64,000 nt of DNA from Legionella cherrii. Lineage in GTDB: Bacteria > Pseudomonadota > Gammaproteobacteria > Legionellales > Legionellaceae. The DNA is taken from NCBI RefSeq assembly GCF_900635815.1, contig NZ_LR134173.1, positions 1 through 64,000 on the forward strand, given 5' to 3'. The notes under the pieces are model-generated. The model ran no database searches and had not been told where the DNA came from. It worked only from the letters and a program-made list of their open reading frames with translations. A program made the translations under genes and the position numbers. Below, one piece after another: positions 50,923 to 60,156 of the stretch. Positions within the stretch are counted from its first letter, which is position 1, and each line of letters begins with the position of its first letter.

Positions 50923-51005
50923 TATTATCTTCAGCTTGTACTCGTATAATACATATATTGGCTATAATTAAATCAAAACACTTATAATTGTGGGATATAT
51001 GTATT

Positions 51006-52760
51006 ATGCAAACACCTATAGATGCATCAATTGTGCGTTCCTTGCAACAACAACTTGATCAATACGACAATCGTGGTCCATTTTGCATAAGCCCTGATGG
51101 AGAAGCACAGTTATACGAAGGTATAGAAAAATATGAAGGAACTCGCTATGCATCAGCTAAATCTTATATAGAAAGATATCATCTAAATATAGACCCTAAT
51201 GCTTCCTCTGATCCCCAGTTTTTTAGAAAAAAATTCATAGATTACATTCAGAATCATCCTTTCCCTCAATATAACGATGACCCTGCAATACGTAAGACCC
51301 GTCCTGAAGAAGCTACTACTACTATGGAACAATTTTTTGGTAAACAAGGTGCTGAATTATACCAACTCGCCTTAGAAGAAGAGATGCATAGCAAAGATTA
51401 CAGGAATGCAGTAGTCATCAAGTCAACCTCTCATTTTGATGGCCCAAAATGGTTAGAACGTCCTGTGGTAGTCGTTGGTGGCCCCTCAGCCTCTGGAAAA
51501 TCTTTTGCAGCACAAGCAGCAGTGGAAAAAGCAAAAGAGTTTTTAGCAGCTGATTATAGTGATATGAGTGGAAATCATGTGATAGCGGCTGATGGAGGAA
51601 TTGTCCGTGAAGTATCGCAAATGCGTAAACTAGTCATCCAACTAGCCAATAATCAAGGATATACAGGTGTTGAAGATTTATATAAAAAATCTAAAAAATA
51701 TATGGAAAGTGTAAAAGACTGTGTCCGTGAAGCAGCATTTTTAAGCCCTGAATTAGGTGTTGTGATTCCTGAAACATTTACAGACCCGTTAAAAGGAAAA
51801 AAACTGCTGAAACAAATTGAAAAGCTAGATAATACAAAACATATTTTTACACGTGTGGTAGGTCACAATGACACTGTATTTAAAAAAGTTGTTGCTTTTA
51901 TGGGCTCAAGAAGAGCATGGAAAACCGATAATTTTAACCAAGAAGCATTAGATTTAAATAAATCCGGTTTAGCAGAATCCAAGGCATATGGCAAAGGCGG
52001 GTTTAAATGGGGTAAATTTTTCTCTAAAGAAGCTGAGGACTGGTTTAGACATAAGAGTAAAGATAAATTATATATGCACATCACGAATGATCTCATTCTT
52101 TTGAAACCCGATCCCAATCAACCAGGAAATTGGATTGATGCAAACCAAAACGATGACGGGGCACGCCTATTCTCTGAAAAGGCCTATAAAGAATGGAAAG
52201 CCTTGACTTCTGGACCTGATCCTGATGCTGCTCTTTCTCCTAAACCCAGCCTTATCGACTATTGCAAGGCACATTCAAAATCTCAAATTACAACATCGCC
52301 ACAAATCGACTTTCTCGTCGCCCAAAAAAAAGTGGAACAAAAAATAGCTTTAGGCCATCAAAAAATTAATAAGTTAATGACTCAAACACCTGTTAACGAA
52401 GAAAAAATTAGGTGCCTAAAAACGAGAGAAGCCTTGTTAGAAGGCATTATGAACTTTTCATTAAAAAATTTGGATCGTTTGGAAGATATCGGACAAATGA
52501 AAGCTCAGGTTGAAGAGCAGCTGTTTACTCTAAGAATAGACCATAACGCGAAAAAAATTCTTAGCAAAAGAACAATGAATACAGTCAATGAATTTATAGA
52601 AACACTGGATAAGGCAACTAAAGAATTCGAAAATAATCCAAACTTCTATGAAAAGAGCAACAATACGGTCTTCTTTAAACGGAAATATAATGAAGTTTTA
52701 AAACAACTTGAAAATATCGATCAGCAAGAAGAGCAAACTACCCCGAACGGTCCGTTTTAA
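51006..52760 (+). CDS. Zeta-toxin-like P-loop kinase-fold protein, effector or toxin candidate
   Basis: The 584-residue product has a Walker A in VVVVGGPSASGKSFAAQAA (about residues 155-175). Further conserved-looking blocks are VIAADGGIVREVSQMRK and LGVVIPETFTD, consistent with the zeta-toxin/P-loop kinase fold. An N-terminal domain of about 150 residues and a charged, coiled-coil-like C-terminal third (about 430-570) flank it. No signal peptide is present. In Legionella, zeta-like domains occur in Dot/Icm effector candidates, and the size and extra domains favour an effector over a classical toxin. I prefer the ATG at 51006 to a TTG six codons earlier. No strong ribosome-binding site is visible. 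Confidence 0.6.
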   Translation: MQTPIDASIVRSLQQQLDQYDNRGPFCISPDGEAQLYEGIEKYEGTRYASAKSYIERYHLNIDPNASSDPQFFRKKFIDYIQNHPFPQYNDDPAIRKTRPEEATTTMEQFFGKQGAELYQLALEEEMHSKDYRNAVVIKSTSHFDGPKWLERPVVVVGGPSASGKSFAAQAAVEKAKEFLAADYSDMSGNHVIAADGGIVREVSQMRKLVIQLANNQGYTGVEDLYKKSKKYMESVKDCVREAAFLSPELGVVIPETFTDPLKGKKLLKQIEKLDNTKHIFTRVVGHNDTVFKKVVAFMGSRRAWKTDNFNQEALDLNKSGLAESKAYGKGGFKWGKFFSKEAEDWFRHKSKDKLYMHITNDLILLKPDPNQPGNWIDANQNDDGARLFSEKAYKEWKALTSGPDPDAALSPKPSLIDYCKAHSKSQITTSPQIDFLVAQKKVEQKIALGHQKINKLMTQTPVNEEKIRCLKTREALLEGIMNFSLKNLDRLEDIGQMKAQVEEQLFTLRIDHNAKKILSKRTMNTVNEFIETLDKATKEFENNPNFYEKSNNTVFFKRKYNEVLKQLENIDQQEEQTTPNGPF

Positions 52761-52864: not shown

Positions 52865-53968
52865 CTATAACTCCTGAAGTGCATTCAATAAATTATCTAT
52901 ATCTTTTTCATTATTATAGTAATGCAAGGAAACTCTAATACCGCCATCGCGTTGAGTTACCCAGACATTATGGCTTTCCAGGAGTTTCATGATTTTATCT
53001 AACTCTTGGAAAGGCCCTAACTGTACGATACCTGAGCGACATTGCTTCTCAGTATTTGAAAGTACAGGAATATTGAATTGACGTAATCGTTCTATTAAAT
53101 AATCAGTAAGAGATGTAATACGCGCTGCGATATTTGAAATACCAATTTCTTCAATCAGATCAAGTGCCGCATTAAAACCGGAAAAAATAGTCATATTATC
53201 CCAGCCCAATTCAAAAACTCGAGCAGATTGATAAAATTGACAGCTTCCATCAAAGTTCATCGCAGACTGTACACTTCTCCATCCGATTAAAGCGGGAGTC
53301 AATTTTTTAAAGAAGTCTGGATGAATATAGATAAATGCTATTCCTTCACCACAGCACATCCACTTATAACAAGAACAAACTAATGCATCAATTCCTTGCT
53401 TTTTAACATCGATAGGGAATGCACCAATTCCTTGAGTTCCATTCACAATAAAATGCGCGTCTTTTTTTAAGTGCTTAATTTGTTCCAAATTAAGTTTATA
53501 ACCATTAGCATAATGGACGTAACTGGCAACAATTGAAGAAATTCTTTCATCTTCTTGTTGAGCAGAATCTAACCGTGCAGCAAGATCCGCAGCTGAATCA
53601 GTCCATTTTACTGAATGTCCAGCATTTTCCCAAGGTAAAATCGATGAAGAAAAATCATTTTTTACAAGCAAAACAGAATCTTCACGGGGGAGCGAATGAG
53701 CTAATGCGTTCATACCGAATGAAACACTAGGAATAAAAGCAATATGCTCTTTTTCTGCATTAATCAATTGAGCAATTTTTTCTCGACATGTTTCCATCAG
53801 CTGAATGTTGTCACCAAAAATTCTTCCCCCATTCAATGCCAGTGATTGGTATCGGTCAGTCACTGCCTGAAGTGCTTGCTTTGATAAAGCCCCCCCTCCA
53901 GCTGTCATAAAATAGGTTTGTTGATTTACAACAGGAAACAGTTCTCGGTATTTTTCCCAATTTATCAT
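52865..53968 (-). CDS. Class V PLP-dependent aminotransferase-like enzyme
   Basis: The 367-residue product resembles cysteine desulfurase/isopenicillin N epimerase-type PLP enzymes. HIAFIPSVSFGMNALAH marks the cofactor phosphate region, and NGTQGIGAFPIDV holds the Asp/Gln region that positions the pyridine ring. The Schiff-base Lys is in CSCYKWMCCGEGIAFIYI. It lacks the C-terminal active-site Cys loop typical of SufS. It is the last gene of the cyclodipeptide-synthase operon, four bases after the adenylating enzyme. It could perform transamination, epimerisation or C-S/C-N lyase chemistry on an amino acid or on the cluster intermediate. Confidence 0.82.
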   Translation of the reverse strand: MINWEKYRELFPVVNQQTYFMTAGGGALSKQALQAVTDRYQSLALNGGRIFGDNIQLMETCREKIAQLINAEKEHIAFIPSVSFGMNALAHSLPREDSVLLVKNDFSSSILPWENAGHSVKWTDSAADLAARLDSAQQEDERISSIVASYVHYANGYKLNLEQIKHLKKDAHFIVNGTQGIGAFPIDVKKQGIDALVCSCYKWMCCGEGIAFIYIHPDFFKKLTPALIGWRSVQSAMNFDGSCQFYQSARVFELGWDNMTIFSGFNAALDLIEEIGISNIAARITSLTDYLIERLRQFNIPVLSNTEKQCRSGIVQLGPFQELDKIMKLLESHNVWVTQRDGGIRVSLHYYNNEKDIDNLLNALQEL

Positions 53969-53972
53969 TATC

Positions 53973-55310
53973 TTATAACCCTTCTTCGCAACAATAATTT
54001 AACTCCAGCCGTTCTTTAGCCTCTTCTTCACTCATACCGTCTAAAACGTAAAGAGTTCCTGCCTTAGTTTTTGCAATCCCTAATTTATTGGCGAGTTGAC
54101 CGGGCATAAAAACATGGATATGTTCAACAGCAATAGACAATTGATGCAAAATATCTGTTTTTAGTTGTTGAATTAATGCTGAAATTTGTGCTGAATCTAA
54201 ATTGTTTAATAATTCAATTCTCAATTCAACGGCACCACCTCGTGTAATAATTTGGTAATCACAGGCAATTTGATCATATTGAAATAGAATATTTTCAATT
54301 TCTATAGGAAAAGCTGAATTTCCAGTGGTTTTACACTGAATTAAATCTGCAGCTCGCCCCATCGCATTGATCACTGGAGTAGAATACTCACAACCACAGT
54401 CATTTTGTAATTTACCAAAATCACCCGTTTTATAACGTAACAGTGGCATATGATTTTTATGGGTATTGGTTAAAACGATATTGCCTAATTCTCCCTCATT
54501 CTTTATTGGTGTATTAAAATCATCTTCTAATAATTCAATAATCAAATAAGGTTTTGAAGGTAAATGATACTGATGTTTACTGCATGATACTAAACCACCA
54601 CTATCAAGTTCCGTTAATCCATAAACTCCATGAACAGTTGCTCCTCCATATAGCTTACTGATACGAGCAAATTTAGCTTGGGAGATAATTTCCCCTGTTA
54701 AAATAATTTTTTTAATTGAAGATGTTGCCGGATCAATACCTTGTGCACGCATTGCCTCCGCGTAACGCAGGGTTTCTAATGGGCGAGCAATAAGTAGCTC
54801 AGGCTTCATACGAGCAAAAATTTCCAACATTTTTCTAGGTGAGCACAGATGAGTCTTTACTCCAGTGGGAATAGCCATAATCCCTAATTGGTTTAACGCA
54901 GCAAAATATTTTAAGCCAATAGGATTCATTTCAAAAGGTAATGCAATCACAGCACTTTTAACTTCGGTTTTATCTAAAGCGAGCCATTCGTATATAAAAT
55001 TTGCAAATTCTCGACTGCGTTCTGGACCTAAATCAGGAATAACAGGAAATGGATTGCCTGAAGTACCGCTTGTTTCAAAATAAGCAGGAGGTCTTTTGGC
55101 AAGTGCTTCATCAACAAGGACAGAAATTCCAGGATATTTTTTATCAAGGGTTGGGAAATGCCGAAGATCACTTAAATCATTAATTGAATCTGGAACGTTC
55201 TTGTAGGTGTTTTTATAAAATGCAAAATTCTCTTTTACATATTGAATCAAATCGTTAAAGCGATTACACAATACTTCTTGATCACTTTTGCTTAAAAATA
55301 TACTCGACAT
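53973..55310 (-). CDS. PaaK-like acyl/aryl-adenylating enzyme
   Basis: The 445-residue product belongs to the phenylacetate-CoA-ligase branch of ANL adenylating enzymes. The phosphate loop is YFETSGTSGNPFPV (about residues 78-91). VHGVYGLTELDSGG contains the substrate/adenylate region, LLRYKTGDFGKL holds the conserved Asp, and a C-terminal lid domain follows. It activates a carboxylate with ATP, either to a CoA thioester or for direct transfer. No carrier-protein gene is visible nearby. It is third in the operon, 63 bases after the oxygenase, and is a core tailoring or loading enzyme of the putative cluster. Confidence 0.85.
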   Translation of the reverse strand: MSSIFLSKSDQEVLCNRFNDLIQYVKENFAFYKNTYKNVPDSINDLSDLRHFPTLDKKYPGISVLVDEALAKRPPAYFETSGTSGNPFPVIPDLGPERSREFANFIYEWLALDKTEVKSAVIALPFEMNPIGLKYFAALNQLGIMAIPTGVKTHLCSPRKMLEIFARMKPELLIARPLETLRYAEAMRAQGIDPATSSIKKIILTGEIISQAKFARISKLYGGATVHGVYGLTELDSGGLVSCSKHQYHLPSKPYLIIELLEDDFNTPIKNEGELGNIVLTNTHKNHMPLLRYKTGDFGKLQNDCGCEYSTPVINAMGRAADLIQCKTTGNSAFPIEIENILFQYDQIACDYQIITRGGAVELRIELLNNLDSAQISALIQQLKTDILHQLSIAVEHIHVFMPGQLANKLGIAKTKAGTLYVLDGMSEEEAKERLELNYCCEEGL

Positions 55311-55373
55311 AGTAACCCCAAAAAATTGAATAAATTACTTCCATGTTTCATTGAAGCGTTCAATATGTTGATG

Positions 55374-56369
55374 CTATGCATCCGCTAATGCTTCTTTGTC
55401 CTTGGCACCTATGCTGTAATTATTTTTGATCTGCATCATTAAGAAATCAGCATATTCCATTGGTTCAAATATTGGCTTTTTCTCAGTATTAACCGGTGCT
55501 ATTACCGCATGAGGATCCGGTTCAAAAAATAGTGGAATAGAATATCTTTCTTTCCCAGAAACATTAATTACGCGATGTGGTGTTGAAATATATTCGCCGT
55601 TACTGAGGCGATGCATCATATCTCCAGTATTTAAAATAAAGGCTCCGTCTAGAGGAGGTACATCCAACCAGGTACCATCACATTGTTTCACTTGTAACCC
55701 ACCCACTGAATCTTGAGCTAACAAAGTCAATGCCCCCCAATCAGTATGAGGTGCAATTCCATATTGATGCTCAGGAATTACTTCAGGTTGTGCTGGATAA
55801 TATTGCAAGCGTAAGAAAGTGGTTGGCTTGATAAAAAATTTATCTAATTCATAATAATTCTGATTTAATGATAGGGAAAAAACACGAATTAAGTTACGCA
55901 ATAGGAGTAAAACATTTTCACGATAATGTAGTAATACATTCTTAAAATCAGGCAATAAATGTTCTGAAGGCCACTGATTAGGTCCAGCAAGATTAATACC
56001 TAATTTATAATCTTCATCTGTATCGGGCACATCATGACCCAATATAAATGCGGCGCTTTGATTAGGTATCATCGTTTCACCTAAAGTTGATAACTTAAAA
56101 CGAGATCCTTGAATGGCCATATACCCGCGGAAAAATTGGTTTTGCTTTATTTTTAACTTTTCTTCTTCAGGCAAATGGTGAAATAATCTTGATTGTTCAA
56201 AAATCGTATCAAACATATGTTGAGAAATCCCATGATTAATAACATATGCGAAACCAATATTGGTATATACTTCTTTAAACTGCTGGGCTAAAGCGTGTAA
56301 ATCATGTATTGAACGAGCAGTAAAAAGGGCTGAAACATCAATTATTGGGATTTGGCTCACTTTTATCAT
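55374..56369 (-). CDS. 2-oxoglutarate/Fe(II) oxygenase, isopenicillin-N-synthase-like
   Basis: The 331-residue product has the N-terminal DIOX_N-type region (IPIIDVSALF, GFAYVINHGISQ). The jelly-roll core has iron ligands in APHTDWGALTLL (His-x-Asp) and STPHRVIN (distal His), plus RYSIPLFFEPD with the Arg that binds 2-oxoglutarate. Such enzymes hydroxylate, desaturate or cyclise small molecules. It is second in the operon, after the cyclodipeptide-synthase-like gene, so an amino-acid-derived or diketopiperazine substrate is plausible. Confidence 0.88.
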   Translation of the reverse strand: MIKVSQIPIIDVSALFTARSIHDLHALAQQFKEVYTNIGFAYVINHGISQHMFDTIFEQSRLFHHLPEEEKLKIKQNQFFRGYMAIQGSRFKLSTLGETMIPNQSAAFILGHDVPDTDEDYKLGINLAGPNQWPSEHLLPDFKNVLLHYRENVLLLLRNLIRVFSLSLNQNYYELDKFFIKPTTFLRLQYYPAQPEVIPEHQYGIAPHTDWGALTLLAQDSVGGLQVKQCDGTWLDVPPLDGAFILNTGDMMHRLSNGEYISTPHRVINVSGKERYSIPLFFEPDPHAVIAPVNTEKKPIFEPMEYADFLMMQIKNNYSIGAKDKEALADA

Positions 56370-56434
56370 AAAAATTCCTTAAAAACCGCCTATAACAAAA
56401 CAATATTTGGTAAAAATGCCCTCCCTAACATTTT

Positions 56435-56455
56435 GGCATCCTAAAAAAGGATGCC
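56435..56455 (-). other. Hairpin between the cyclodipeptide-synthase-like gene and the oxygenase
   Basis: A perfect 7-bp stem (GGCATCC 56435-56441 with GGATGCC 56449-56455) has an A-rich loop. It has no T tract after it on the minus strand. It may be an attenuating or mRNA-stabilising hairpin that sets the ratio of the first gene to the rest. Confidence 0.45.
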
Positions 56456-56474
56456 TCCTGATGACTGATGTTCG

Positions 56475-57221
56475 TTATTTCTTTTTAAAACGCAGATAAA
56501 TCCACTGACATTTATCACTGTATTCATCAGTAACAAATAGTTCTCGCGTTTTCGCCATGCCAGGTGTTAAAGGTTTAGGATAAATAATGTAGTCATAACC
56601 CATTTTTGCCCAAAGTGGCATTACAATAGGACATTCCTCTATGAGATAGTTCAATCCATGAGTAAATAGAGTACTTGTATCTGTAGAAGGATTAATCAGG
56701 GTTAAGCGCTCAATATAAGTCAAAACATTCGTATGAAGAGCAGCCTTATATTCTTCATTGTCACGATAGGCAGCATCTACACGCTCTTTGAGTGCTGCAT
56801 AGTCTTCATGTAATAGAAAATCATCCCAACGAATAATGCTATGGGGTACATTCAATTTACTCAGTGCAAAAGCACTTCGTTCGAGCCAAAGATCACCTGC
56901 CTCTTTGGCAAAGATGTATGCCTTTTCTTCACCCAATCTACCGTAATGATTATGCTTTTGCAGCGTATCAGCGAGTACAATGTCACAGCGTCCAAATGGA
57001 TATTTATTAACTAGTTCAATTGTTGCTAAAAACTTCCCTTTTTCATGATAAGCCTGTCCAACACTAATAAATAACAGAGCCTTCTTTCCTTCAAAATTCA
57101 TTTTCTTATTTTCACTCTCGATATCCAGATCAGAATATCTGAATGAAGCCTTATGCGTATTTAATTCCTCCGTGTTTACTGGGCTCCATTGTTCCTCAAT
57201 TTGATGTTCGACAGAAAACAT
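56475..57221 (-). CDS. tRNA-dependent cyclodipeptide synthase (CDPS)-like protein
   Basis: CDPSs use two aminoacyl-tRNAs to make a cyclic dipeptide. The 248-residue length fits the family. Visible family features are LLFISVGQAYHE with candidate nucleophile S53, DTLQKHN, LWLERS, and YLIEECP with Y192 and E196, then IIYP. The spacing S53-Y192-E196 (139 and 4 residues) closely follows the catalytic S37-Y178-E182 of AlbC. The ATG at 57221 has AAGGAAG upstream. It heads the minus-strand operon and is divergent from a TauD-like gene. The amino acids used cannot be predicted by eye. The call is fairly strong, but the subgroup is atypical. Confidence 0.75.
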   Translation of the reverse strand: MFSVEHQIEEQWSPVNTEELNTHKASFRYSDLDIESENKKMNFEGKKALLFISVGQAYHEKGKFLATIELVNKYPFGRCDIVLADTLQKHNHYGRLGEEKAYIFAKEAGDLWLERSAFALSKLNVPHSIIRWDDFLLHEDYAALKERVDAAYRDNEEYKAALHTNVLTYIERLTLINPSTDTSTLFTHGLNYLIEECPIVMPLWAKMGYDYIIYPKPLTPGMAKTRELFVTDEYSDKCQWIYLRFKKK

Positions 57222-57283
57222 TTATAGCTTCCTTTTGAAAATTGTTATTTTTTAGCACTCCAAATTGCTAACTATTTAATTTT

Positions 57284-57386
57284 AAAGTGAAAAATATTTA
57301 CAATTTGAGAGTTGGGCGTGATTATATCAATTATCCGTACTATTTCACTATTTTTTTTTCATTAAACATTAAAAATATTCACTTTG
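57284..57386. promoter_or_regulatory. Divergent promoter region with repeated AGTGAA motifs
   Basis: AAAGTGAAAAATAT at 57284-57297 faces AAATATTCACTTT at 57373-57385, and a third TTTCACT lies at 57343-57349. The region is very AT-rich and lies between the divergent cyclodipeptide-synthase-like and TauD-like genes. The repeats may be operator sites for a shared regulator. No regulator gene is adjacent. Confidence 0.35.
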
Positions 57387-57416
57387 CTATTTACTAATTC
57401 AATAAATTTGTTTTTA

Positions 57417-58445
57417 ATGAGGTCAAAATTAACGACTAACTTAAGTAGTAGGCATATAGGATCCAAGATGGCTCAGCAGATGAAGAATCCGTTAAAATGG
57501 TATAGTAAGGAGATTAAGGACGGCCCTGCAAATTCGAGAGAACTCTCGTTACATGAAAAAAAAGTAGTCACTCAAGTTCTAGATCTTTTGGAAAACAAAG
57601 ATTCTGCATGGGATAACAGTGCGGTCAAAAATACATTGCAGCACGAACTTCGCCCATTATTCGACGAAATCATGCATTCTTTAATCCAAGTTCGCGGATT
57701 TATAACCATAACTGGATTTCCCTCCGCCAATGATAAATACAGTGCTGAGATAATTAAAAAATTTCTTTTAGCGTTTTGCTCACACTTGGGTTCTCCTCTA
57801 ATCCAAAACAAAAACAATGATCTGATATTTGATGTTAAAAGTATCGAGGGAATGACTCTTAATACCAAAGATTCGCGTGGTCCTTATGTGAAAGATGCTC
57901 TGCCAATGCATACCGATGCAGGAGCTATTCTGGGGATGTATTGTCTTGCATCCGCTGATGTTGGTGGTCATACGATACTTGCCAGTTCCCGGACTGTTCA
58001 TGATGAAATACAAAAAATAAGACCTGATCTTCTTGAGGTATTATATCAACCTGTGTATGCGGATCGGCGTGGAAATGAACCAGCAGGCGAACTACCGTAT
58101 GATTTAAGTCCGGTCTTTGCTATGTATGAGAATGAATTGCGTTGTCAATATCATCAACCATTTTATAACGATGCGCAAAAAAAATTCCCTGAGCTACCGC
58201 GTTTTTCATCGCAACAAATTGAAGCCATGGAATTATTCGATGAAATTTCACTACGAGAAGATATTGCATTTGAAACAAAAGTAAAGCCAGGTAGCATAAT
58301 TTTTATCAATAATGAAGAAATCCTCCATGGAAGAACAACTTTTGATCACCCTGAAAATCAAACCGTGCGTCACCTATTAAGGATTTGGTTAAATACCCCG
58401 ATAATTAAACATACCTTTCCTAGCTTTTTAGGGTACCCAGGATAA
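57417..58445 (+). CDS. TauD/TfdA-family Fe(II)/2-oxoglutarate dioxygenase
   Basis: The product of about 342 residues has the iron-binding ALPMHTDAGAILG (His-x-Asp) and NNEEILHGRTTF with the distal His. HLLRIWLN supplies the co-substrate Arg, and LYQPVYADRRGNEPAG is typical of TauD-like enzymes found in natural-product clusters. It would hydroxylate or halogenate-like functionalise a small molecule; the Asp ligand is present, so it is not of halogenase type. The start is uncertain: ATG at 57417 or 57468 is likelier than the TTG at 57384. It is divergent from the operon and upstream of the exporter. Confidence 0.82.
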   Translation: MRSKLTTNLSSRHIGSKMAQQMKNPLKWYSKEIKDGPANSRELSLHEKKVVTQVLDLLENKDSAWDNSAVKNTLQHELRPLFDEIMHSLIQVRGFITITGFPSANDKYSAEIIKKFLLAFCSHLGSPLIQNKNNDLIFDVKSIEGMTLNTKDSRGPYVKDALPMHTDAGAILGMYCLASADVGGHTILASSRTVHDEIQKIRPDLLEVLYQPVYADRRGNEPAGELPYDLSPVFAMYENELRCQYHQPFYNDAQKKFPELPRFSSQQIEAMELFDEISLREDIAFETKVKPGSIIFINNEEILHGRTTFDHPENQTVRHLLRIWLNTPIIKHTFPSFLGYPG

Positions 58446-58590
58446 AATAAATACAACACGGATGTTGCCACGTTCCTCTATTGAAAATTTTATTTGTTTT
58501 AAAATAGATATTAATTTACAATTTTCCCGCATACCATGGCTAAAAATTATCTTTTGTAGCCCTTTTTTAAACATACTCTTAGGATGAAAC

Positions 58591-60156
58591 GTGTCTACAA
58601 CCACCAAAGTCGATAATTATCAACATAAATGGTATGCATTTATGGGAATTGCCCTACTGTCTTTTGGATGTTATCTCGATTATACCGTAGTAAATGTCGC
58701 ATTACCCACCATCCAACATGAATTACAAGCCAACCTAGTATCCATGCAATGGGTCATGAATATTTACTTTCTGGCATTATGTGTTTTAGCTACGGTAATG
58801 GGTGGATTTGGTGATTTATATGGACGCCGACGTTGTTTATATCTAGGAGGAGCGATTTTTGTCATTGCATCGATCATCGCCGGTCTCTCTTCTCATATTC
58901 ATTGGTTGATTTTTGGTCGTTTATTGCAGGGTGTCGGTGCTGCAATTATATTTCCTTTAGGGCTCTCACTACTCCCCCAATTTTTCCCTGAACAAGAGCG
59001 AGGTAAAGCCGTAGCTTGGTTTGGCAGCATAGGCGGCATTGCATTAGCCTTGGGCCCCCTTTTAGGCGGTCTTATCGTTACTTATCTGGGGTGGAGATGG
59101 ATTTTCTTCATCAATATTCCTATCTGCTTATTAGGATATATTTTTTGTTTCAAATCTGTTTCAGAATCGCAAACTAATTCCCAACTGATTGCTTTAGATA
59201 TAAAAGGGATGCTTTTACTTGCATTCACTATGGGCAGCATCGTATTAGGTTTAATTTATAGCCAAAGCTATGGTTGGAGCGCACCAATCACGTTAACCTG
59301 TTTTGCAGTGACTCTGATCATGGGCAGTTTATTAGTCAAAGCTGAAAATAATCATCCTAATCCTCTTATTGACTTTAAAGATTATTCCAATTTACTCTTT
59401 TCAGCCGGAGCTATTCTTGTCTTTTTAGCCGGTATATTAAGCGCCGTTACTTTATTTTTCGATCCCCTTTATTTACAAATTATCAAAGAGCAATCGGCAC
59501 AATTATCTGGCTTTGTTTTATTTGCCATACCTGTCTCAGTGTTTTTAATTGCTTTTTTTGTAGGAAAACTAATTCATAATCTGGGATTGTTGCATACTAT
59601 TTTACTTGGGTTGTTCTTAGGGTGTTTGGCAACCCTATTACAAGTGTTTTTTACCAGTAATGCCTCATTATTCTACATTATTTTTGCATTTATTGGTCTT
59701 GGAAGCATGTGGGCAATGGGTAATACTGTCTCAATCATTGCAGCCCAAACCGCAGTAGGCCCTGAACGTGCAAGTGTTGCAACAGGATCTATGGTTACTT
59801 TATTTAATATCGGTGGCTCTATAGGCTTATCTCTTGCAATTGTTATTTATAATTTTGTAACCAATCATTCTCTATCTTCGCTATCTAAAGACCACTTAAA
59901 TGGGCTAAGTGAAACACAAATTTCCAGTTTACAAGAGTTCATAGCCAATCCAACTCATTCATTACAACTTTCAGAAAATGATTTAACCCATCAATTGTTT
60001 AATAAAATATTCATGAATGGTTTTACTGGCGTGATGGCGTTTCTATTTATCGCTTCTCTTATTGCCCTCTCAGTTATTTGGCGGGGCAAAAAAGTTGAAA
60101 GCAAAGTGAAGGTCAATAAAATTACCCGTGTTAAGAATAATGGTTCTGTAGCTTAA
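58591..60156 (+). CDS. MFS multidrug/metabolite exporter, DHA2 (EmrB/QacA) family, 14 helices
   Basis: The 521-residue proton antiporter has LDYTVVNVALPTIQHEL in helix 1 (the DHA2 motif), GDLYGRRR in loop 2-3, the antiporter motif GPLLGGLIV in helix 5, and about 14 hydrophobic helices. The start is GTG at 58591, eight bases after AGGATG. It follows the TauD-like gene by 145 bases on the same strand and most likely exports the product of the neighbouring cluster, giving self-protection. Confidence 0.9.
   Translation: MSTTTKVDNYQHKWYAFMGIALLSFGCYLDYTVVNVALPTIQHELQANLVSMQWVMNIYFLALCVLATVMGGFGDLYGRRRCLYLGGAIFVIASIIAGLSSHIHWLIFGRLLQGVGAAIIFPLGLSLLPQFFPEQERGKAVAWFGSIGGIALALGPLLGGLIVTYLGWRWIFFINIPICLLGYIFCFKSVSESQTNSQLIALDIKGMLLLAFTMGSIVLGLIYSQSYGWSAPITLTCFAVTLIMGSLLVKAENNHPNPLIDFKDYSNLLFSAGAILVFLAGILSAVTLFFDPLYLQIIKEQSAQLSGFVLFAIPVSVFLIAFFVGKLIHNLGLLHTILLGLFLGCLATLLQVFFTSNASLFYIIFAFIGLGSMWAMGNTVSIIAAQTAVGPERASVATGSMVTLFNIGGSIGLSLAIVIYNFVTNHSLSSLSKDHLNGLSETQISSLQEFIANPTHSLQLSENDLTHQLFNKIFMNGFTGVMAFLFIASLIALSVIWRGKKVESKVKVNKITRVKNNGSVA

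What the first reader, a model, noticed from the sequence alone, without database searches (positions are those of the whole stretch)
52865..60156. Candidate natural-product cluster built on a cyclodipeptide-synthase-like enzyme
Seen: a minus-strand run encodes a CDPS-like protein (S53, Y192, E196 at AlbC-like spacing), an IPNS-like Fe(II) oxygenase, a PaaK-like adenylating enzyme and a class V PLP enzyme. A TauD-like dioxygenase and a 14-helix DHA2 exporter run the other way. Known: CDPS genes lie in small clusters with tailoring enzymes, usually cyclodipeptide oxidases, P450s, methyltransferases or 2-oxoglutarate enzymes. The combination with a PaaK-like ligase, a class V PLP enzyme and two distinct Fe(II)/2-oxoglutarate-type oxygenases is not one I can match to a described pathway. 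Inference: a diketopiperazine or dipeptide scaffold is made from tRNA, oxidised, perhaps acylated by the activated acid, and exported. It could matter for amoeba or host interaction or for competition.
Basis: partly seen in the sequence, partly recalled or inferred. Interest (0 to 1): 0.88.

Follow-up and report, generated by a model that had tools for sequence, protein, structure and literature searches.

The report
Legionella cyclo(Gly-Glu) pathway gene cluster
Some Legionella bacteria carry a small set of genes that probably makes an acidic ring-shaped two-amino-acid compound, cyclo(Gly-Glu), and then oxidises it and activates its acid arm, using a combination of enzymes that I did not find described for this kind of pathway.

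Summary
The gene at 56475-57221 is a real cyclodipeptide synthase (CDPS), of the XYP subfamily rather than AlbC's NYH. Its pocket motifs (LFVAWIVI / NTYRKLT, by my mapping) equal the printed Gly/Glu row, which fits the L. lansingensis enzyme that made only cyclo(Gly-Glu). CDPS of this type, 2OG-Fe(II) oxygenase, PaaK-like ligase and class V PLP enzyme occur in the same 9 of 45 Legionella genomes: side by side at two chromosomal sites in eight, while in L. waltersii the oxygenase is unlinked and precedes an MFS gene. Purifying selection is strong. At the zwf-rimK site six genomes hold the block and three only relics. Two corrections: the DHA2 exporter is a resident of that site (13 of 45 genomes; at four such sites no block gene was matched), and the TauD-like gene is accessory. 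A relative in another family has CDPS, oxygenase and MFS genes together without the ligase, so the oxygenase probably acts first. Most likely product: an oxidised cyclo(Gly-Glu) whose side-chain carboxyl is adenylated and coupled or converted; the ligase and PLP steps are inferred. The PLP enzyme has Asn (9 of 9) where eight relatives have Asp. New variant of a known kind.

The parts
56475..57221 (-). XYP-type cyclodipeptide synthase, predicted cyclo(Gly-L-Glu) synthase; catalytic S53, Y192, E196, Y214-P215; P1 = L49 F51 V82 A84 W132 I199 V200 I212, P2 = N165 T168 Y169 R172 K216 L218 T219
   Evidence: pocket table in PMC5816076
55374..56369 (-). Fe(II)/2-oxoglutarate oxygenase of the DIOX_N/2OG-FeII_Oxy (IPNS/EFE-like) superfamily, with H208, D210, H265, R275, S277; likely acts on the cyclodipeptide
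   Evidence: same 9 of 45 genomes at E<=1e-30; near the CDPS also in another family
53973..55310 (-). PaaK-like AMP-forming ligase (TSGTSGNP, YGLTE, R319, K414), proposed to activate the Glu side-chain carboxyl
   Evidence: same 9 of 45 genomes
52865..53968 (-). class V (fold type I) PLP enzyme with the lysine K202 but Asn176 in place of the usual Asp; no conserved C-terminal Cys
   Evidence: same 9 of 45 genomes at E<1e-218
57480..58445 (+). TauD-family Fe(II)/2OG dioxygenase (closest solved relative FrbJ), accessory; ORF listed from 57384, conserved start at 57480
57222..57479 (.). shared divergent leader between CDPS and TauD genes; aligned region 57200-57490 has mean column identity 88% in six genomes, with a nearly invariant stretch at about 57365-57419
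58591..60156 (+). DHA2-type MFS exporter; resident of the zwf-rimK site, present also where the block is absent; possible but not dedicated exporter

Best explanation
A four-enzyme pathway for a modified acidic diketopiperazine. Step 1 (well predicted): the CDPS joins glycine and glutamate taken from Gly-tRNA and Glu-tRNA into cyclo(Gly-L-Glu). Step 2 (inferred): the IPNS/EFE-like Fe(II)/2OG oxygenase hydroxylates or desaturates the ring or its side chain. Step 3 (inferred): the PaaK-like enzyme adenylates the free side-chain carboxyl, which this cyclodipeptide has and most others lack, and passes it to CoA or straight to a nucleophile. Step 4 (weakly inferred): the class V PLP enzyme supplies or reshapes the amino partner; its Asp-to-Asn change suggests chemistry other than plain transamination. 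In six of nine genomes a TauD-like oxygenase beside the block may add a further oxidation, and an MFS pump may export the product. The biological role is unknown.
For: Pocket letters equal the only G/E row of PMC5816076 Table 2; CDPS 87 of L. lansingensis made 100% cGE, and its authors explain Phe at P1 position 2 (here F51) as leaving room only for Gly. Under the same mapping four other CDPSs, the second CDPS of this genome included, give different motifs. The 15 residues are invariant in 9 block CDPSs. Nearest solved relative Nbra-CDPS makes cyclo(Ala-Glu), Glu second (PMC13062777). The four enzymes are in the same 9 of 45 genomes, in the same order at two sites in 8 of them; in waltersii the oxygenase is elsewhere, 57 bases before an MFS gene. 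G352, another family: 54.5% CDPS, P1 identical, P2 NSYRKVT, with a 44% oxygenase and two MFS genes. dN/dS 0.036-0.135 for the four enzymes, 5 comparisons each. Relics show block genes lost together.
Against: No product has been seen. The pocket mapping is not blind: 8 of 15 positions follow from catalytic anchors (S53, E196, Y214) and a recalled position list, 4 from recalled spacing, 3 (V82, A84, W132) were placed with the motif in view; the paper calls P1's fourth position 119 where I take 119 as the fifth; searches did not print an AlbC alignment. The ligase substrate is a guess. The species are related, so co-occurrence is not independent. A PLP enzyme normally needs a free amine, which cyclo(Gly-Glu) lacks. 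The ligase has GRAAD where GRxDD is usual (recalled). Curated CDPS cut-offs are narrowly missed. I could not view the L. lansingensis locus. Nbra-CDPS with a small P1 pocket makes no cGE, for tRNA reasons.
Confidence: 0.55

Rival explanations
1. The ligase activates a different acid (aryl, fatty or amino acid, perhaps formed with the PLP enzyme) and attaches it to an oxidised cyclodipeptide: the first reader's acylation idea.
For: PaaK-like enzymes mostly act on aryl acids (recalled); weak kinship to the bagremycin/ferroverdin synthetase model BagE/FevW (1.3e-16). A hydroxylated ring would offer an acceptor, and this gives the PLP enzyme a natural free amino-acid substrate.
Against: No acyltransferase gene among the six; the predicted cyclodipeptide already carries a carboxyl that no other gene of the block would obviously use.
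Confidence: 0.27
2. Two unrelated pairs happen to be neighbours: CDPS plus oxygenase make one product, PaaK plus PLP enzyme another.
For: G352 has the CDPS-oxygenase pair without a ligase match and with only a weak class V match elsewhere; in waltersii the oxygenase is unlinked from the other three.
Against: All four are in the same 9 of 45 genomes, in one order at two sites, and in waltersii it is CDPS, PaaK and PLP that stay together.
Confidence: 0.1
3. The block makes a signal rather than a competitive or host-directed compound (about role, not chemistry).
For: The genome's other two CDPS genes lie next to PAS histidine kinase genes; PMC5767969 suggests signalling for CDPS genes near PAS domains (passage).
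Against: No homologue of those kinases in the block loci: 0 of 8 (L031-L036, L038, L039), and none in L127; in the window none of the eight proteins scanned around the block is a kinase of that kind.
Confidence: 0.15

Closest known systems
cGE group of XYP cyclodipeptide synthases (CDPS 87, Legionella lansingensis; PMC5816076)
   Same: same P1 and P2 pocket letters by my mapping; Legionella; XYP catalytic set
   Different: the passages and section I saw characterise the enzyme, not a cluster; I could not view the L. lansingensis locus
Nbra-CDPS, cyclo(Ala-Glu) synthase (5MLQ, 9I5M, 9IAJ-9IAM; PMC13062777)
   Same: nearest solved structure (E 3e-51), XYP type, Glu as second substrate
   Different: Leu32 where this enzyme has Phe51; makes cAE and no cGE
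Bicyclomycin CDPS cluster (recalled; named in PMC5816076 as a cLI/cLL-type CDPS pathway)
   Same: CDPS with Fe(II)/2OG tailoring (recalled)
   Different: cLI/cLL scaffold; no PaaK-like ligase or PLP enzyme (recalled)
PaaK-type ligases (4r1l; BagE/FevW, DVU_1553, FlxY models)
   Same: homology over most of the length and AMP-binding motifs
   Different: far below every equivalog cut-off; no relative at E<=1e-35 in the 397 other genomes of the phylum sample
Class V PLP enzymes (C-DES cystine lyase, SufS, PvdN, kynureninase)
   Same: fold (TM 0.73-0.80 for the 50 listed matches of a modest model), K202
   Different: Asn176 for Asp; no conserved desulfurase Cys

Membership tests
Cyclodipeptide synthase (CDPS) | sequence and fold match to solved CDPSs | tested here: met
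   phmmer 3e-51 to 5mlq; 44 of 45 Foldseek chains at E<=0.001 are CDPS; curated Pfam/NCBIfam cut-offs narrowly missed
Cyclodipeptide synthase (CDPS) | catalytic Ser37, Tyr178, Glu182, Tyr202 (AlbC numbering) | tested here: met
   S53, Y192, E196, Y214 invariant in the 9 block CDPSs
XYP subfamily | Pro at 203, any residue at 40, against N40/H203 of NYH | tested here: met
   Y214-P215, Q56; definition in PMC13062777
NYH subfamily (AlbC type) | N40 and H203 | tested here: not met
   Q56 and P215
cGE specificity group | P1 LFVAWIVI and P2 NTYRKLT | tested here: met
   15 of 15 letters, but only 8 positions follow from catalytic anchors; 4 from recalled spacing and 3 placed with the motif in view; the table row carries no enzyme number in the held text
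cGE specificity group | makes cyclo(Gly-Glu) | not testable with these tools
   needs chemistry
Isopenicillin N synthase | closest to IPNS among solved structures | tested here: not met
   best hit 9ovh (196 bits), IPNS entries about 71 bits or less
Fe(II)/2OG oxygenase superfamily | HxD...H triad and RxS (motif recalled) | tested here: met
   H208, D210, H265, R275, S277, invariant in A4
Phenylacetate-CoA ligase (PaaK) | equivalog model cut-off | tested here: not met
   98.8 bits against 646.3: PaaK-like, not PaaK
Cysteine desulfurase | catalytic Cys in C-terminal loop (recalled) | tested here: not met
   in columns 301-371 of A3 only the window's protein has a Cys, none is conserved
Class V PLP enzyme | Schiff-base Lys and Asp facing the pyridine nitrogen (roles recalled) | tested here: inconclusive
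   K202 met; Asp replaced by Asn176 in 9 of 9, Asp in the 8 non-block relatives aligned

The most novel reading that the evidence does not exclude
A cyclodipeptide pathway in which the scaffold brings its own reactive handle: the side-chain carboxyl of cyclo(Gly-Glu) is adenylated by a dedicated PaaK-like enzyme and worked on together with a class V PLP enzyme that has given up the normally fixed Asp for Asn, so that both the tailoring logic and the PLP chemistry would be new for this class.
Probability: 0.3. Interest if true: 0.72.

Novelty: new variant of a known kind. Interest (0 to 1): 0.52.

Why it matters
[quoted passage not shown] This block gives a specific predicted scaffold, a likely first tailoring enzyme, and two enzymes for which I found no CDPS precedent in the held library. 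The Asn in the PLP enzyme and the carboxyl-bearing scaffold turn it into clear chemical questions.

Tried and rejected
Cysteine desulfurase or sulphur-transfer role for the PLP enzyme: rejected, no conserved C-terminal Cys. IPNS/CefD-like beta-lactam pathway: rejected as superfamily resemblance. DHA2 as a member of the co-inherited block: rejected, although 8 of 9 block genomes have it against 5 of 36 others. Defence system: only generic desulfurase models DndA/SspA at about 1e-10 for one of six proteins scanned. Plasmid spread: four plasmid records with a CDPS at 28%, all Ca. Endohaliclona; ligase matches in 233 plasmid records, all under 60% identity and 24-28% in the 20 listed. Ligase search of 398 genomes of the phylum at E<=1e-35 found only the window's genome, so no donor was found. 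The genome-contig scan gave 7 loci, all Legionella; it depends on two short peptide patterns and did not list L. lansingensis. Attempts to get a printed AlbC alignment failed: AlbC was not among the alignments shown. Paper searches brought nothing on this block in their listings; (PAS kinase side question) listed one review, not read.
Full report
What is there. The window is bases 1-64000 of a 3.73 Mb single-contig genome (G000). Four read leftwards with gaps of 105, 63 and 4 bases: CDPS, 2OG-Fe(II) oxygenase, PaaK-like ligase, class V PLP enzyme. A TauD-like gene and a DHA2 exporter read rightwards.

The CDPS. Pfam and NCBIfam scores lie just below their curated cut-offs (25.5 of 27; 44.0 of 45 bits), but phmmer finds the solved Nocardia brasiliensis CDPS at 3e-51 and the Fluoribacter dumoffii CDPS at 1.5e-32, and 44 of 45 Foldseek chains with E<=0.001 to the predicted model are CDPSs (mean pLDDT 59.8, so I lean on sequence). 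Ser53, Tyr192, Glu196 and Tyr214-Pro215 make it XYP type. The pocket residues read LFVAWIVI and NTYRKLT, the letters of the only G/E row of Table 2 of PMC5816076 (section 11 read; the row carries no enzyme number in the held text). That paper reports 100% cGE for CDPS 87 of L. lansingensis (passage), counts 1 characterised among 7 members of its cGE group, and explains Phe at the second P1 position as leaving room for glycine only (passage).

How firm the pocket reading is. The AlbC position list is recalled. Eight positions follow from catalytic anchors (Ser53 gives L49, F51; Glu196 gives I199, V200; Tyr214 gives I212, K216, L218, T219), and all eight letters agree. Four (N165, T168, Y169, R172) follow from recalled spacing. 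Three (V82, A84, W132) I placed with the motif in view. The paper calls the third P1 position 65 and the eighth 200, as I do, but its fourth 119, where I take 119 as the fifth. Applied to eight other CDPSs, the mapping gives the same letters for the three block relatives tested, P1 identical and P2 NSYRKVT for G352, and different letters for the other four. All 15 residues are invariant among nine block CDPSs. In Nbra-CDPS, which makes cyclo(Ala-Glu), Leu32 stands where this enzyme has Phe51, and shrinking it lets in leucine; Nbra-CDPS itself makes no cGE because it does not take the glycine tRNA stem (passages). Cyclo(Gly-L-Glu) is the best prediction.

Distribution. Across 45 genomes of the genus the four enzymes are in the same nine: CDPS of this type (E<=1e-148; 29 of 45 have some CDPS match), ligase (10 of 45 at E<=0.001, the tenth only 1.5e-7), PLP enzyme (nine at E<1e-218; five other genomes hold relatives at 2.9e-45 or weaker, making 14 of 45 at E<=1e-20), oxygenase (9 of 45 at E<=1e-30). 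There are 886 million ways to choose 9 of 45, but the species are related, so this is not a probability. The order is the same in six genomes at the zwf-rimK site (window, G017, PATHC038, L. steigerwaltii, L. bozemanae, L. parisiensis) and, without TauD and DHA2, in two beside genes that I read by eye as metK and ahcY (PC1000, L. steelei). In L. waltersii CDPS, ligase and PLP enzyme stay together, while the oxygenase is on another contig, 57 bases before an MFS gene. I fetched the neighbourhood in all nine genomes.

Outside the genus. Of 369 genomes of the class 17, the window's included, match the CDPS profile. One, G352 of another family, is close: 54.5% identity. There an oxygenase of the block's kind (44%) and two MFS genes lie around the CDPS; that genome has no ligase match at E<=0.001 (the same profile finds all nine block genomes) and only a weak class V match (9.7e-5) on another contig. 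The contig ends 1.5 kb beyond the CDPS. I infer that CDPS and oxygenase are the older pair and that ligase and PLP enzyme were added. Of 398 genomes of the phylum sample only the window's own has the ligase at E<=1e-35.

History of the site. At zwf-rimK the block sits between a fast-evolving P-loop gene and DHA2. In G041, G015, G018 and G025 these two are neighbours and no block gene matches at E<=1e-3. G032 (L. steelei, which has the block at its other site) keeps part of TauD, part of the ligase and a PLP gene in two frames, with DHA2 whole; G023 keeps TauD and PLP pieces; G034 a 23-residue PLP piece. A tree of five flanking proteins from these 13 sites, rooted at its midpoint, puts block and relic genomes in both main branches (one inner node has support 0.176), which fits an old block lost several times. 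DHA2 is in 13 of 45 genomes: 8 of the 9 with the block and 5 of the 36 without; the excess fits common descent of the site as well as a link. TauD is beside the block in six, elsewhere in G041 (67%), and in pieces in two; L. waltersii has none at E<=1e-30.

Selection. With five pairwise comparisons each, dN/dS against the window is 0.049-0.076 (CDPS), 0.036-0.086 (oxygenase), 0.053-0.079 (ligase), 0.067-0.135 (PLP), 0.066-0.149 (TauD), 0.074-0.090 (DHA2), against 0.190-0.295 for the P-loop neighbour. The genes are under constraint, so the block is very probably functional.

The other enzymes. Oxygenase: H208, D210, H265, R275, S277; nearest solved protein 9ovh, named an ethylene/succinate-forming enzyme, with many others before IPNS. 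Ligase: nearest 4r1l (2.1e-30), AMP motifs present, GRAAD where GRxDD is usual (recalled). PLP enzyme: nearest solved relatives are cysteine desulfurases and the C-DES lyase, but no Cys is conserved in the last 71 columns, and Asn176 stands in 9 of 9 where the 8 non-block relatives aligned have Asp. TauD: nearest FrbJ.

How it most likely works. Shown: sequence kinship, catalytic residues, pocket letters with the limits told above, co-inheritance, selection. Inferred: cyclo(Gly-Glu), then oxidation, then adenylation of the side-chain carboxyl, then coupling or conversion with the PLP enzyme, then export. The PLP step is the weakest.

Literature. PMC5126622 (survey of 15 Legionella genomes including L. 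parisiensis; abstract, outline and passages seen) has no 'cyclodipeptide' or 'CDPS' in its main text. PMC11828895 (section 17 read) reports a plasmid CDPS region in L. lytica by antiSMASH without describing the genes around it. PMC2922099 mentions Legionella CDPSs and possible host roles (passages). PMC11610984 lists CDPS tailoring enzymes, ligases in general among them, and has no 'pyridoxal' (passage). Searching 'cyclodipeptide' with 'phenylacetate-CoA ligase' listed one review of marine alkaloids, not read. Supplements and subscription papers were not searched.

Noticed in passing
L043:6622-10005, L044:8775-12283, and loci L037, L040, L041, L042, L045, L126, L128-L137: Of the CDPS loci not of the block's type whose flanks I fetched, 18 of 18 have a homologue of the PAS-type hybrid histidine kinases close to the CDPS gene (two kinases cut by contig ends, three at only 26-29% identity and perhaps generic; further CDPS hits were not fetched), against 0 of 8 block loci and none in L127. 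Looks like a widespread cyclodipeptide-signalling pair; PMC5767969 noted PAS domains near CDPSs.
   Followed up: partly
L043:9253-10005 (G000:C1 around 3397316-3398020) and L044:8775-10346: The genome holds two more CDPS genes: a 251-aa one very close to the F. dumoffii CDPS 5ocd (3.6e-140), and a 523-aa one with a long C-terminal extension, like the cAA group of Legionellaceae described in PMC5816076.
   Followed up: partly
50988-52760: 590-aa P-loop protein (GGPSASGKS; weak AAA_33 match below cut-off) of unknown function beside the block; dN/dS 0.19-0.30 against 0.04-0.15 for the six genes.
   Followed up: partly
57365-57419: Nearly invariant stretch in the divergent CDPS-TauD leader in six genomes; possible shared promoter or operator.
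   Followed up: no
L121:7631-10164, L151:9431-9926, L161:10917-10985: Relics of the block at the same site in three genomes, DHA2 open over full or nearly full length in each.
   Followed up: yes
L132 and L134 (G244, G106): A DHA2-type MFS gene (33-35% to the window's) also lies next to a CDPS and its kinase gene in two genomes of another family.
   Followed up: no
L036:5943-7013: In L. waltersii a beta-lactamase-like gene (Beta-lactamase2) lies just downstream of the block.
   Followed up: no
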